Both the position numbers and the translations under genes were made by a program. From contig NW_020621936.1 in assembly GCF_003573695.1 (NCBI RefSeq), positions 7,502,001 through 7,566,000 on the forward strand: 64,000 nucleotides of DNA, in the 5' to 3' direction. Origin of the DNA: Papaver somniferum (lineage: Eukaryota > Streptophyta > Magnoliopsida > Ranunculales > Papaveraceae). Of this stretch, positions 53,516 to 61,756 are shown piece by piece. Every line of letters begins with the position of its first letter. Positions within the stretch are counted from its first letter, which is position 1. The notes under the pieces are model-generated. The model had not been told where the DNA came from. It did not search any database and worked only from the letters and a program-made list of their open reading frames with translations.

Positions 53516-55261
53516 ATGTCTGGATATTGGTCTGCTCCTGGGGATGGAAATAAAACTCTTAGAGAACTTGCTTATGGGCATATGCCACGTTATGAACCTT
53601 CCACGGACCATGATGTCAATAGTCATAGGAATTATTATGGACATTTTCAAAGTCCCGAGCCGCAATACATGAACCCTAATGACTATTCATACATGCATCA
53701 TTCGCCACAACGTGAAAATGAACACTTTGCTAGTGCCTCACTCACCCAATCATCACTTATGGATCAAATAGAAGCTCGAATCACAGCTTTAGAAATGCAA
53801 TCACATGAGGAATCTGTCACATCTAATTTTCTTAGGCAACCTGAAATCTATGCATGTCCCGCATGTGGTAGTTTAGACCACCCTGTTGAGCATTGTCATA
53901 TTTTGCATAATTTTAGGCAATCTAGAGAAAATCCAATGTATGAAACGCCCATAAATTGTGAGAATGGTAGTCATTGGGACCATAATCAATCCTTTGAGGG
54001 TTGCGATCAATCTTTTATAAACCCTAATGACCATGCACCACAATTTGAACATGAAGAATTTTGTACTCCCATGAATTTAGACTCCACCACAGAAGCTTTC
54101 AGACTTAGTGAGCAAAACTTCGATAGATCTACATCACGAATTCAGGCATATTTAGATCAGATTTTGCTTCACCTACAAAAGGAGGAAATTCATGAGGAAA
54201 TGTATGTTGTCCCTAATGAAGTGTCTAGTCCCATTCATATAAATAATGTTGAATATGAACCTAATTTAGAGGAACATGAATCGACTAACGACACCACCAC
54301 TTTTAATGAGGACCAATATGCATGCTACCATGATGATGATTATGATGATTATGATGATGTGTTAGAAGAACATGAAAATATTGTGGGACCTGTTGGTTCA
54401 ATAACATATGGCTTCTCGCCCTCGACCTTCATGAATGTTGTTTTTTCTAATACTCATTGTAATTCATATGATTTTGATATTGACATGGGATTCGTACAAT
54501 TATTCTGTGAAGATGAGCATGACATAGGAATAGTTGAATCTTCTGTAGACACTAATATGCATGAAAATATATTTGATGTGTCTGATTCTCTACCTAGGTC
54601 ACATTGTGATATTTCTCCTGATTTGCCGATGCATGAGAATGAATCTGTTGATGATGTTGATGATTCTAAGTGTGAACTTGCCAATGTGAGTGATGATTGT
54701 GAGCATGATGTGACATGTGTAGATGAGTTAGAAGATTTTGATTTGATTGATAATGATATGCCTATTCTTCTACCTAAGTCACAATCTGATGGCCTTCCAC
54801 CCAACCTAGATTTGGTTTGTACCAATATTATAAAACCAATTTCTCTGAGAATGCCCAACCTAGGTTTGGAAATGTGTGCTTCCCAAGTCCTCTTGGACTA
54901 TTTTGCTTCCAAATATAATACATTTGAGGAACCACAGTTGGAAATAGCATGTTTGCCCGTCCCTAGCACAGTTCATTTCGAGCTAGACCTTTTGCATGAT
55001 GAACCCCCGAAACTGCGCGATTTTGTTTTCAAAAGTATATCTTCTGTAAAATCCAGGTTTGGGGGTAGCTCATTTTGTTTCACAGTTTCACTTGCGTTTC
55101 TTTCCTGTTATTATTGTGTGAAGCTGTTGAAATGTCTACACTTCGTCTTTTGGGTTGATCCTCAACTCTTTAGATTGTTAGTGTATGGTGAATTTTTTGT
55201 ATATAATCCAGTAGATAAAATTTTAAAAACCCTTTTGTTCCTTTTGTATATATTTTGCTAA
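53516..55261 (+). CDS. ORF2: zinc-knuckle, acidic, hydrophobic-tail protein of unit B
   Basis: 581 codons, intact. Start chosen at 53516 because unit C aligns from the same Met. Layout: LRELAYGHMPRYEP-type N-terminus; short helix (DQIEARITALEMQSHEE, about 83-100); zinc knuckle CPACGSLDHPVEHC at 114-127 (CX2CX4HX4C); Asp/Glu/His-rich middle with DDDYDDYDDVLEEHE at about 273-287; then a tail with ASQVLLDYFASKYNTFEEPQ and, after a Gly-Gly at 516-517, a strongly hydrophobic stretch (about 518-565) that could span a membrane. The helix-plus-knuckle resembles the same part of unit A Gag (ARRIEALELQ, then CALC...C), so ORF2 may have acquired a Gag nucleocapsid piece. It stands where Athila elements carry an env-like ORF. 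Function unknown; RNA binding through the knuckle is inference. Confidence 0.75.
   Translation: MSGYWSAPGDGNKTLRELAYGHMPRYEPSTDHDVNSHRNYYGHFQSPEPQYMNPNDYSYMHHSPQRENEHFASASLTQSSLMDQIEARITALEMQSHEESVTSNFLRQPEIYACPACGSLDHPVEHCHILHNFRQSRENPMYETPINCENGSHWDHNQSFEGCDQSFINPNDHAPQFEHEEFCTPMNLDSTTEAFRLSEQNFDRSTSRIQAYLDQILLHLQKEEIHEEMYVVPNEVSSPIHINNVEYEPNLEEHESTNDTTTFNEDQYACYHDDDYDDYDDVLEEHENIVGPVGSITYGFSPSTFMNVVFSNTHCNSYDFDIDMGFVQLFCEDEHDIGIVESSVDTNMHENIFDVSDSLPRSHCDISPDLPMHENESVDDVDDSKCELANVSDDCEHDVTCVDELEDFDLIDNDMPILLPKSQSDGLPPNLDLVCTNIIKPISLRMPNLGLEMCASQVLLDYFASKYNTFEEPQLEIACLPVPSTVHFELDLLHDEPPKLRDFVFKSISSVKSRFGGSSFCFTVSLAFLSCYYCVKLLKCLHFVFWVDPQLFRLLVYGEFFVYNPVDKILKTLLFLLYIFC
55055..55067 (+). promoter_or_regulatory. 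polypurine-like tract inside ORF2, unit B
   Basis: AGGTTTGGGGGTA, the same 13-mer as the terminal tract, here encoding the Arg-Phe-Gly-Gly before the hydrophobic tail. The unit C copy is at 61583-61595. Confidence 0.45.
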
Positions 55262-56608
55262 TCCAATATGATCTCGGTTGAAATATGTTGGATTTTTGCC
55301 TTGAATAACGGAGTTTTAATTCTGCTTTCGCCGAAATCGGGTATTCTCTCTCCTTTTACTCTACTCAGCATGTCCCTTTCCATATGTTGCATTTTAATTC
55401 TTTCCATATTTTGAAACATTGAGGACAATGTTTAGTTTAGGTTTGGGGGTATAGAGTAGATACCACGATAATATGCCATAATTGAAAACAAAACTCCTTC
55501 TTCTTTTTGAAAAAATCGAAAAAATTCAAAAAAAATAAATTATTAAAAAAAAAAAAAAATGAAAAAAACATAAAAATGGAGCTCATTTACCTTGAAATGT
55601 TGACTCTTGTGCAAATATGTATTTTTATTAGGAGTCTTAGTCTAGATATTTAGGCACCCTGATTCTAGCACAATTCACATAGTGATAAGAAATTTGCACG
55701 CGCACGATCTACCAATACATGTATGGCCTCGATCTTCAAGGTGTTGGATAGGAAGTTACGATTGCCAATCACTTTAGAATACTGAACGAAACTTGACTAG
55801 CTTGTTCTTTGGTTGGTTGGGATAGAAGGTGGAGGTTACATTAAGAAAGACAACCATCGAATTTAACTGGGTGCATGAAAAAGGGCTACCTCTTGCAAAG
55901 TGTCATGTAATCTTTTGTTTCCTTTTGTATATGTATCAAAAGTGTTTCCTTTTCAAAAAAAGAAAAAGAAAAAAAAGAATGAAAAAAATGAAAAAATAAA
56001 TCAAGTATTTATCAATTCCATCCTCTCTTGTTCCAAAAATAAAAGAGAGTAGTCAATGTAAATAAGAGTCATGTAAATAGTCAATTTGTTGTTTCATTGT
56101 AATAAGCAAGGAAGGGTGTATGCCATTGATGTACAACGCGAGTAATTGTGAAATACCTCCAACTCATTCACAATTCTCGTAAAGTCCGGACAGCTAGCTA
56201 GATTTCGACCTTGGTTCTTAGCCTGAGAAACTATCTCTTGGTGATTAGTAGTCATAACATCCGATCTTTCTTTACACATGTGTAGATACACTTTATACTC
56301 TTATCACATGTCTTTATTTGTTATCAGTGCTAGGATTGTGCCTTTGATAGCTAGATTGACATCTCCATTTTGCTGTGAGCTTAAACTGACTTGCACATGT
56401 CACATTTGATGGAATCTGAGCTTATATTTTGACCTAGAACTTTGTAGGTACGTTCTAAGAAAACCTTCACGAGACTTCAACTCGTCCACTAGGGACACTT
56501 AGTGGTTTAAAAGGCTTAGTGCATACGCTAAATGCATTCGAGAGACCAGCGACAGTGGTATAGGTAGGATTTCCTTAGTTTTGTTTTACTTGAGGACAAG
56601 TAAAATTC
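55262..56608 (+). mobile_element. unit B 3' untranslated region
   Basis: Collinear with 48495-49942 and 61757-63118. Internal polypurine-like tract at 55439-55451; A/G-rich hypervariable stretch at 55955-56000. Its last ~150 bp (GACCTAGAACTTTGTAGGTACG) differ from units A and C, in step with the different LTR that follows. Confidence 0.75.
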
Positions 56609-60028: not shown

Positions 60029-61756
60029 ATGTCTAGATCTTTTTCTACAATTGGGGAATACAACGAATCCCTTAGAGAACTTGCGTATGGACAAACTTCA
60101 CGTTATGAACCTCCCACAGACCATGATGTCAATAGTTATAGGAATTATTATGGACATTTTCAAAGTCCCGAGCCTCAATACATGAACCCTAATGACTATT
60201 CGCACATGCATCGTTTGCCACAACGTGAAAATGAACATTTTGCTAGTGCCTCACTCACACAATCATCTCTTGTGGATCAATTAGAAGCTCGAATCGCAGC
60301 TTTAGAAATGCAATCACATGAGGAATCTGTCACATCTAATTTTCTTAGGCAACCTGAAATCTATGCATGTCCCGCATGTGGTAGTTTAGACCACCCTGTT
60401 GAGAATTGTCATATTTTGCATAATTTTAGGCAATCTAGAGAAAATCCAAGGTATGAAATGCCCATAAATTGTGAGAATGGTAGTCATTGGGACCATAATC
60501 AATCCTTTGAGGGTTGCGATCAATCTTTTATAAACCCTAATGACCATGTACACATGTACCAATCACCATAATTTGAACATGAAGAATTTTGTACTCCCAT
60601 GAATTTAGACTCCACCACAGAAGCTTTCAGACTCAGTGAGCAAAACTTCGATAGATCTACATCACGAATTCAGGCATATTTAGATCAGATTTTGCTTCAC
60701 CTACAAAAGGAGGAAATTCATGAGGAAATGTATGTTGTCCCTAATGAAGTGTCTAGTCCCATTCATGTAAATGATGTTGAATATGAACCTAATTTAGAGG
60801 AACATGAATCGACTAACGACACCACAACTTTTAATGAGGACCAATATGCATACTACCATGATGATGATTATGATGATTATGATGATGTGTTAGAAGAACA
60901 TGAAATTATTGTGGAACCTGTTGGTTCAATAACATATGGCTTCTCGCCCTCGACCTTCATGAATGTTGTTTTTTCTAATACTCATTGTAATTCATATGAT
61001 TTTGATATTGACATGGGATTCGTACAATTATTCTGTGAAGATGAACATGACATAGGAATAGTTGAATCTTCTGTAGACACTAATATGCATGAAAATATAT
61101 TTGATGTGTCTGATTCTCTACCTAGGTCACATTGTGATATTTCTCCTGATTTGCCGATGCATGAGAATGAATCTGTTGATGATGTTGATGATTCTAAGTG
61201 TGAACTTGCCAATGTGAGTGATGATTGTGAGCATGATGTGACATGTGTAGATGAGTTAGAAGATTTTGATTTGATTGATAATGATATGCCTATTCTTCTA
61301 CCTGAGTCACAATTTGGTGGCCTTCCACCCAACCTAGATTTGGTTTGTACCAATATTGTAAAACCAATTTTTCTGAAAATCCCTAACCTAGGCTTGGAAC
61401 TGTGTGCTTCCCAAGTCCTCTTGGACTATTTTGCTTCTAAATATAATACATTTGAGGAACCACAGTTGGAATTAGCATGTTTGCCCGTCCCTAGCACAGT
61501 TCATTTCGAGCTAGACCTTTTGCATGATGAACCCCCGAAACTGCGCGATTTTGTTTTCAAAACTATATCTTCTGTAAAATCCAGGTTTGGGGGTACCTCA
61601 TTTTGTTTCACAGTTTCACTTGCGTTTCTTTCCTGTTATATATGTGTGAAGCTGTTGAAATGTCTACACTTCGTCTTTTGGGTTGATCCTCAACTCTTTA
61701 GATTGTTAGTGTATGGTGAATTTTTTGTATATAATCCAGTAGATAAAATTTCTTAA
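60029..61756 (+). pseudogene. ORF2 of unit C, one nonsense codon
   Basis: Same protein as 53516-55261: LRELAYG N-terminus, helix DQLEARIAALEMQSHEE, knuckle CPACGSLDHPVENC, acidic DDDYDDYDD block, hydrophobic tail. It is interrupted by TAA at 60569-60571 where unit B has CAA, a single C-to-T change. Five extra codons (VHMYQ region) lie just before the stop. Downstream the frame is intact for 385 codons and nearly identical to B; a long middle stretch has no amino-acid difference. A 2-base difference near 61751 ends the protein 14 residues earlier than in B. Confidence 0.75.

What the first reader, a model, noticed from the sequence alone, without database searches (positions are those of the whole stretch)
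53516..61756. ORF2 and gag-pol are split between units: a possible complementary two-component retroelement
Unit A has intact gag-pol and lacks ORF2, yet keeps both the linker before ORF2 and the untranslated region after it. Units B and C have ORF2 and lack pol. B retains an intact 581-codon ORF2, and the C copy differs little. If ORF2 were useless to the element it should decay faster. Either ORF2 acts in trans with A, or B and C parasitise A Gag-Pol while ORF2 serves them.
Basis: partly seen in the sequence, partly recalled or inferred. Interest (0 to 1): 0.82.

Follow-up and report, generated by a model that had tools for sequence, protein, structure and literature searches.

The report
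Poppy retrotransposon with split Gag partners
In the opium poppy genome a self-sufficient retrotransposon sits in tandem with relatives that have lost its enzymes but keep a protein made of one half of its coat protein joined to a new, selected tail, so they look like dependent partners that still contribute a part, rather than mere debris.

Summary
Unit A (gag-pol, no ORF2) and units B and C (ORF2, no pol) belong to two large opium poppy element classes sharing primer site, polypurine tract, LTR starts, 3' UTR and linker. 16 of 16 further A-type 3' ends lack ORF2; 35 of 35 ORF2 loci have no pol in the 0.4-1.5 kb read upstream. Markers match 1,870 (A) and 4,057 (ORF2) places.

ORF2's N-terminal part is the zinc-knuckle half of A-type Gag (E 5e-07). 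Units D and E just past the window, and locus L066, carry the other half, Gag capsid (PF03732 in E and L066), on the same C-terminal region. So pol-less units encode two complementary half-Gags on one shared C-terminal domain. That domain is under purifying selection (omega 0.37-0.45); the middle is neutral or nearly so (0.81-1.06).

Best reading: semi-autonomous elements mobilised by A-type Gag-Pol that add modified Gag parts, like RLG_Cereba/RLG_Quinta but with Gag split. Mutual dependence is not supported: A has every enzyme, and its relatives occur in many plants, whereas named ORF2 relatives come only from Papaver.

The parts
39879..41991 (+). LTR1 (A-type), TG...CA
41998..42014 (+). primer binding site of A; the same motif at 52108 and 58503
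42849..48308 (+). unit A gag-pol ORF, 1819 aa: Gag capsid, CCHC knuckle (residue 305), protease, RT, RNase H, integrase
48309..48486 (+). linker after pol, homologous to the stretch before ORF2 in B and C
48487..49957 (+). 3' UTR of A with the polypurine tract at its end, shared with B and C
49958..52101 (+). LTR2, shared by A and B; 24 mismatches and 31 gap positions over 2139 aligned columns to LTR1
52954..53430 (+). A-type Gag N-terminal fragment in unit B, cut off at an 11-nt microhomology
   Evidence: junction found at 2 places in the genome
53516..55261 (+). ORF2 of unit B: Gag knuckle half (CPACGSLDHPVEHC at residue 114) + near-neutral acidic middle + conserved hydrophobic C-terminal domain
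55262..56623 (+). 3' UTR of unit B
56624..58496 (+). LTR3 (second LTR type; 79% to LTR1 over about the first 620 bases only)
60029..61756 (+). ORF2 of unit C, one in-frame stop
61768..63133 (+). 3' UTR of unit C
63134..64000 (+). LTR4, which goes on to about 65092 beyond the window; units D, E and F follow

Best explanation
A-type elements are autonomous LTR retrotransposons of (by resemblance) the Athila lineage. The ORF2 units are semi-autonomous partners: they keep the cis signals of A (primer site, polypurine tract, LTR ends, UTR) but no pol, and are copied in trans by A-type Gag-Pol. Their ORF encodes one half of Gag on a shared C-terminal domain: zinc-knuckle type in B, C and F, capsid type in D and E. 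The proteins most likely enter A-type particles as modified Gag parts: the knuckle binds the partner RNA, the capsid half co-assembles, and the selected C-terminal domain (with a hydrophobic stretch) supplies assembly, membrane or RNA-sorting contact. Shown: anatomy, copy structure, selection on the C-terminal domain. Inferred: mobilisation in trans. Proposed, not shown: what the proteins do.
For: Shared cis signals and 3' UTR. 35 of 35 ORF2 loci (29 near relatives; 6 diverged) have no pol in the stretch read before ORF2 (1.5 kb; about 1.2 kb; 0.44 kb in L062); 16 of 16 A-type 3' ends have no ORF2. ORF2 residues 70-236 match A Gag 261-432 (E 5e-07), with CCHC in 31 of 31 near copies and in P0007, P0015 and P0016. 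D, E and L066 match A Gag 37-267 at 58-59% (E below 1e-96) and carry the ORF2 C-terminal part at 73-95%; PF03732 in E and L066. C-terminal omega 0.40 (31 near copies), 0.45 (15 sequences across families), 0.40 (10 position-chosen copies plus B), 0.37 in the first two after dropping 20 codons with other constraint. In simulated neutral drift 561-codon frames stay open in 0.3% at 0.1 and 0 of 2,000 at 0.2 substitutions per site; families at NG86 dN 0.17-0.28 from B have open ORFs of 615-639 aa (L057, L059, L060). The B recombinant sits on another contig between LTRs of another type that differ by 7 substitutions and 46 gap positions in 2150 columns, as reverse transcription would leave them.
Against: No transcript, protein or particle data. 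The middle of ORF2 evolves at 1.01-1.06 in near copies. Of 12 position-chosen copies 9 are not open over ORF2 residues 1-560 (one of the 9, L066, is of the capsid type). Terminal branches are not much nearer 1 than internal ones (0.70 v 0.59), as choice by protein similarity could cause. The N-terminal signal is modest and not constant (2dlnL 10.7 in near copies, 3.9 and 3.9 in the deep set, 1.8 in the position sample), and a non-coding UTR frame reached 4.4. The profile comparison of ORF2 with Gag gives E 0.0012 but a probability of only 20%. Selection on the capsid half rests on 3 sequences with 12-14 non-synonymous and 9-13 synonymous changes. No target-site duplication could be read for a pol-less unit; the second B-type unit could owe its LTRs to conversion. 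The A-type sample is of close relatives only.
Confidence: 0.6

Rival explanations
1. Plain parasitism: ORF2 is a leftover of an older gag region, plays no part and is drifting to decay; the units move only because they keep A's cis signals.
For: Middle third neutral in near copies; 9 of 12 position-chosen copies not open over ORF2 1-560; C has a stop.
Against: C-terminal domain omega 0.37-0.45 in three samples (0.56 in the unfiltered first run); CCHC invariant in 31 of 31; open ORFs in families too diverged for chance.
Confidence: 0.12
2. ORF2 is an envelope-like or movement-like membrane protein in the usual env position after pol, kept on separate units (not exclusive of the best reading).
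For: Position: the pre-ORF2 linker is the post-pol linker of A, where Arabidopsis Athila env ORFs lie (PMC2410132, Table 1); hydrophobic 19-mers near residues 520 and 540.
Against: N-terminal parts are Gag-related in both ORF types; no Pfam family for ORF2 B at E <= 1; hydropathy peaks of 1.4-2.7 are borderline; no signal-peptide or topology test was run.
Confidence: 0.15
3. ORF2 and capsid-type proteins are interfering half-Gags, as Ty1 p22 is: they bind A Gag, slow A-type particles and thereby favour or spare their carriers.
For: [quoted passage not shown] here too each product holds half a Gag.
Against: Nothing here measures inhibition; ORF2 units depend on A, so strong inhibition would hurt them; an added selected domain is not needed for interference.
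Confidence: 0.13
4. Obligate two-component element: A needs ORF2 as well as the other way round.
For: Complementary absence of pol and ORF2 around a shared linker and UTR.
Against: A has all enzymes and a full Gag; its relatives occur in many plants while named ORF2 relatives come only from Papaver; env-less Athila relatives such as Diaspora exist (PMC1142308, abstract).
Confidence: 0.05

Closest known systems
RLG_Cereba / RLG_Quinta of wheat (PMC11302176: abstract and passages read)
   Same: Autonomous partner plus pol-less partner with the same PBS, LTR termini and PPT; the pol-less ORF encodes GAG plus a domain of unknown function (DUF1).
   Different: There one ORF is described as GAG plus DUF1; here Gag is divided between two unit types (capsid half or knuckle half), each on the same C-terminal domain; lineage is Athila-like, not centromeric.
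Non-autonomous Athila families of Arabidopsis (PMC2410132: abstract, first of three parts of Results, selection section and Discussion read)
   Same: Same lineage by resemblance; whole families without pol, with ORFs under purifying selection, recombination between families.
   Different: Those carry gag, or gag plus env; B and C units carry neither a capsid domain nor a recognisable env, D and E carry only the capsid half of gag.
TR-GAG elements (PMC8704663: abstract read)
   Same: LTR element with a single Gag-type ORF, seen to transpose in ddm1 Arabidopsis.
   Different: ORF2 of B and C has no PF03732 match; both types have an extra selected C-terminal domain.
Diaspora of soybean (PMC1142308: abstract read)
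   Same: Athila-related element with one gag-pol ORF of 1892 codons and no env, like unit A.
   Different: No pol-less partner is described in the abstract.
Tandem arrays of Cassandra elements (PMC7215508: abstract read)
   Same: Arrays of repeated LTRs with internal domains between them.
   Different: Cassandra units code for nothing.
Ty1 p22 (PMC4599808: start of abstract in a search listing)
   Same: Half-Gag product from the same element family.
   Different: Made from an alternative transcript of the same element; an added domain is not mentioned there.

Membership tests
Autonomous / non-autonomous LTR partner pair (criteria as in PMC11302176) | identical primer binding site | tested here: met
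   TGGCGCCGCTGCCGGGG at 41998, 52108 and 58503
Autonomous / non-autonomous LTR partner pair (criteria as in PMC11302176) | identical LTR termini and polypurine tract | tested here: met
   TGATGAGTGC starts in LTR1-LTR6, ends in CA in LTR1-LTR4 with small differences before it, CAGGTTTGGGGGTATT before LTR2, LTR3, LTR4
Autonomous / non-autonomous LTR partner pair (criteria as in PMC11302176) | non-autonomous partner lacks RT and integrase across the family | tested here: met
   0 of 35 ORF2 loci with pol in the 0.4-1.5 kb read upstream
Autonomous / non-autonomous LTR partner pair (criteria as in PMC11302176) | co-expression of both partners | not testable with these tools
   no RNA data
TR-GAG | single ORF with a Gag domain between LTRs | tested here: inconclusive
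   Gag domain met by E and L066 (PF03732); not met by ORF2 of B (0 families at E <= 1) or C (best E 0.22 and 0.014, unrelated families)
Athila lineage | Ty3-type gag-pol with PR-RT-RH-INT order | tested here: met
Athila lineage | RT tree position with Athila | not tested
   resemblance recalled; one search lists plant relatives without a lineage name
Athila lineage | env-like ORF after pol | tested here: not met
   unit A and 16 further A-type 3' ends have no ORF2; env-less members are known (PMC1142308)
Plant env-like protein | recognised env family or clear transmembrane protein | tested here: inconclusive
   no Pfam match; hydropathy only
LARD (definition recalled) | no coding capacity | tested here: not met
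   selected ORF

The most novel reading that the evidence does not exclude
A three-part retroelement with a divided coat protein: A supplies enzymes and whole Gag, and two pol-less classes supply a capsid half and a nucleic-acid-binding half as separate proteins that meet through one shared, selected C-terminal domain to build mixed particles which favour their own RNA.
Probability: 0.2. Interest if true: 0.85.

Novelty: new variant of a known kind. Interest (0 to 1): 0.66.

Why it matters
Whether pol-less retrotransposons that keep an ORF are parasites or contributors is an open question (discussed in PMC2410132 and PMC11302176). Here one genome holds thousands of marker places of a clear test case: the same C-terminal domain kept under selection while it rides on either the capsid half or the knuckle half of Gag, with an autonomous partner that shares the cis signals. 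Studying one domain at a time would separate packaging, assembly and interference. If the halves meet, Gag would be a protein that selfish elements can divide between genomes, as multipartite viruses divide theirs.

Tried and rejected
AlphaFold2 on ORF2 (alignment of 12): mean pLDDT 36, pTM 0.18; no fold search was made on it. PDB by sequence: 0 matches. NCBIfam: 0 families. Idea that A lost ORF2 as a lone deletion: rejected. Idea that the linker match is only its A-rich repeat: rejected by comparison with the pre-gag leader and 60 shuffles. Idea that the low C-terminal omega comes from the polypurine-like stretch or the sampled 32-mer: rejected, omega 0.37 in near and deep sets without those 20 codons. 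Idea of full elements with pol and ORF2 side by side: none seen; none of the 100 listed exact ORF2 marker places has one of the 69 listed exact pol markers of the same stretch of C1 within 3 kb 5'; distant families were not exhausted. First omega run on the 12 position-chosen copies (whole 0.71, middle 0.80, C-terminal 0.56 with 2dlnL 16.4) included out-of-frame alignments and was redone with a filter (10 of 12 copies kept, L065 and L066 dropped for having no stretch at 78% identity or more). One UTR control frame gave omega 0.68 with 2dlnL 4.4, so values near 5 are not evidence. Counts of the UTR marker and of the capsid type genome-wide were not obtained.
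Full report
WHERE IT IS. The window lies on contig C3111 of a 2.7 Gb genome. Proteins named Papaver somniferum match it; P0007 is found at 100% on contig C10, and the contig lengths given for P0007 and P0009 equal those of C10 and C7. It is opium poppy.

ANATOMY. From 39879 an array runs LTR1 - A - LTR2 - B - LTR3 - C - LTR4, with one LTR between neighbouring units. A holds one gag-pol ORF of 1819 codons with Retrotrans_gag, aspartic protease, RT, RNase H, H2C2 and integrase core. B holds an A-type leader, the first 157 residues of A-type Gag, then ORF2. 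C holds ORF2 with one in-frame stop. Past the window the array continues with D, E and F; no pol match was found in the 11.5 kb read.

COMPLEMENTARY ABSENCE IS THE RULE IN WHAT WAS READ. I read 16 A-type 3' ends, picked from the 150 integrase matches: 16 of 16 run pol - linker - UTR with no ORF2. Of 30 best ORF2 loci one is the window's B; in the other 29 no gag or pol match lies outside the knuckle part of ORF2 itself, with 1.5 kb read upstream. Six diverged ORF2 copies (45-63% identical to B in protein) have none either, with about 1.2 kb read upstream, 0.44 kb in L062. The A set was chosen by similarity to A, so a far relative with both genes is not excluded. By 32-base markers at up to 3 mismatches the genome has 4,057 ORF2 places and 1,870 pol-end places, with 0 for the reversed patterns; the markers were picked for conservation in my samples, so the ratio is rough. 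The linker that follows pol in A precedes ORF2 in the others, which fits an ancestor with both genes, each class having lost one part. That ancestor was not seen.

ORF2 IS PARTLY A GAG DERIVATIVE. ORF2 residues 70-236 align with A Gag 261-432 (E 5e-07); a profile comparison finds the same CCHC segment with E 0.0012 but a probability of only 20%. The CX2CX4HX4C motif is present in 31 of 31 near copies and in P0006, P0007, P0015 and P0016; the truncated P0008 lacks it. A sampled copy, L066, did not fit: before the usual C-terminal part it carries Gag capsid. The same is true of D (66096-67580 in extended window coordinates, 495 aa) and E (70354-71892, 513 aa), both open. These three match A Gag 37-267 at 58-59%, have no CCHC, and share 73-95% with the C-terminal 131 residues of ORF2 B, L066 over 97 of them; E and L066 were scanned and have PF03732. 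So the split falls near Gag residue 265: capsid half in one class, knuckle half in the other. In the 12 position-chosen copies 9 have the knuckle half, 1 the capsid half, 2 neither by this test, none both.

SELECTION. Codon models (own script; no ancestral sequences) on 31 near copies: residues 1-160 omega 0.57 (2dlnL against 1: 10.7), 161-430 1.01 (0.0), 431-561 0.40 (22.3). On 15 sequences across families: 0.65 (3.9) and 0.72 (3.9) for 1-60 and 61-160, 0.81 (4.8) for the middle, 0.45 (27.9) for 431-561. Three frames of the non-coding UTR: 1.34 (1.9), 0.68 (4.4), 1.13 (0.4). Near copies were found by protein similarity, which can lower omega, so I took 12 copies by position of an exact 32-mer on C1: 3 of 12 are open from residue 1 to 560 or beyond. 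With 10 of them plus B the values are 0.75 (1.8), 1.06 (0.1) and 0.40 (15.0); an unfiltered first run gave 0.67, 0.80 and 0.56. Dropping the 32-mer and a polypurine-like stretch leaves 0.37 in the near and deep sets. The contrast between C-terminal domain and middle within the same copies argues against ascertainment. In the capsid half D-E dN/dS is 0.024/0.104, D-L066 0.024/0.077, E-L066 0.028/0.113, on few changes. In simulated neutral drift, indels left out, 0.3% of frames stay open at 0.1 and 0 of 2,000 at 0.2 substitutions per site; L057-L060 of the diverged set are open over 615-639 aa, L061 is interrupted.

MOVEMENT AND RECOMBINATION. The B junction joins A Gag and the pre-ORF2 linker at an 11-base identity, TTTTTCCCAAA. 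The 46-base junction, at up to 3 mismatches, occurs at two places, here and on contig C3. On C3 the unit stands between LTRs of another type that differ by 7 substitutions and 46 gap positions in 2150 columns, with its ORF2 broken into three frames; a primer site follows its 3' LTR, so it too is in an array and no target-site duplication can be read. Near-identical flanking LTRs suggest that this pol-less unit was copied by reverse transcription, hence in trans; LTR exchange by conversion is not excluded. The junction may come from template switching in a shared particle or from a chromosomal event. LTRs of the array are mosaics; pairs agree from their start over 190 to 985 bases before they part, LTR1 and LTR2 nearly throughout. 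Tandem arrays are common: of 100 listed exact ORF2 places 17 lie in six same-strand runs at 6.35-6.58 kb, and the 100 listed exact pol markers show three pairs at 9.96-10.25 kb.

MECHANISM. Shown: the two classes, their shared cis signals, the Gag relation of both ORF types, selection on the C-terminal domain. Inferred from knowledge of LTR elements: pol-less units are copied by A-type Gag-Pol. Proposed: the half-Gags join A-type particles, the knuckle half on RNA, the capsid half in the shell, with the C-terminal domain as the working part under selection.

KNOWN KINDS. RLG_Quinta (GAG plus an unknown domain, with RLG_Cereba as autonomous partner) works most alike; Arabidopsis pol-less Athila families with selected gag or gag-env are the nearest relatives by resemblance; a TR-GAG element has been seen to transpose. 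For papers and extent read see Closest known systems. Also used: PMC7264820 (abstract and one section), PMC12582370 (passages and one section; on three Papaver species, it reports non-autonomous Retand groups and two additional transmembrane ORFs in Retand) and PMC11963269 (passages). I found no description of these poppy units or of a Gag divided between unit types in the listings; the library is open-access only and I read few of the listed papers.

Noticed in passing
L039/L040, extended window coordinates 66096-67580 and 70354-71892: Units D and E encode open ORFs of 495 and 513 aa: Gag capsid fused to the ORF2 C-terminal domain.
   Followed up: partly
48687, 49943, 55055, 55439, 56609, 61583, 61969, 63119: The polypurine motif AGGTTTGGGGGTA occurs before LTR2, LTR3 and LTR4, again in the UTRs, and a third time inside the coding frame of ORF2 (22 bases with one difference from the true tract): possible extra plus-strand start sites.
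   Followed up: partly
genome contig C1, listings: Tandem arrays with shared-LTR spacing are frequent: ORF2 units every 6.35-6.58 kb (a run of five at 21.106-21.132 Mb), A units at 9.96-10.25 kb, and three pol-pol pairs at 4.24-4.26 kb.
   Followed up: partly
L015/L017 (one place), L021, L062: ORF2 is repeated at short distance without a full unit between (about 2.5-2.7 kb in the first two places); L062 repeats only its N-terminal part.
   Followed up: no
49185-49312: A pure A tract of about 128 bases in the 3' UTR of A; B and C have A-rich counterparts.
   Followed up: no
26014-27033 (-): ORF of 339 aa with a weak copia-type gag match (PF14223, E 1.2e-05, below cut-off) and a sub-threshold zinc knuckle; an unrelated element.
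   Followed up: no
P0011 (contig length 219560757, that of C2): A poppy gene model fuses an ORF2-like stretch to DUF7952 and DUF7650 domains; may be a gene-prediction artefact or a captured piece.
   Followed up: no
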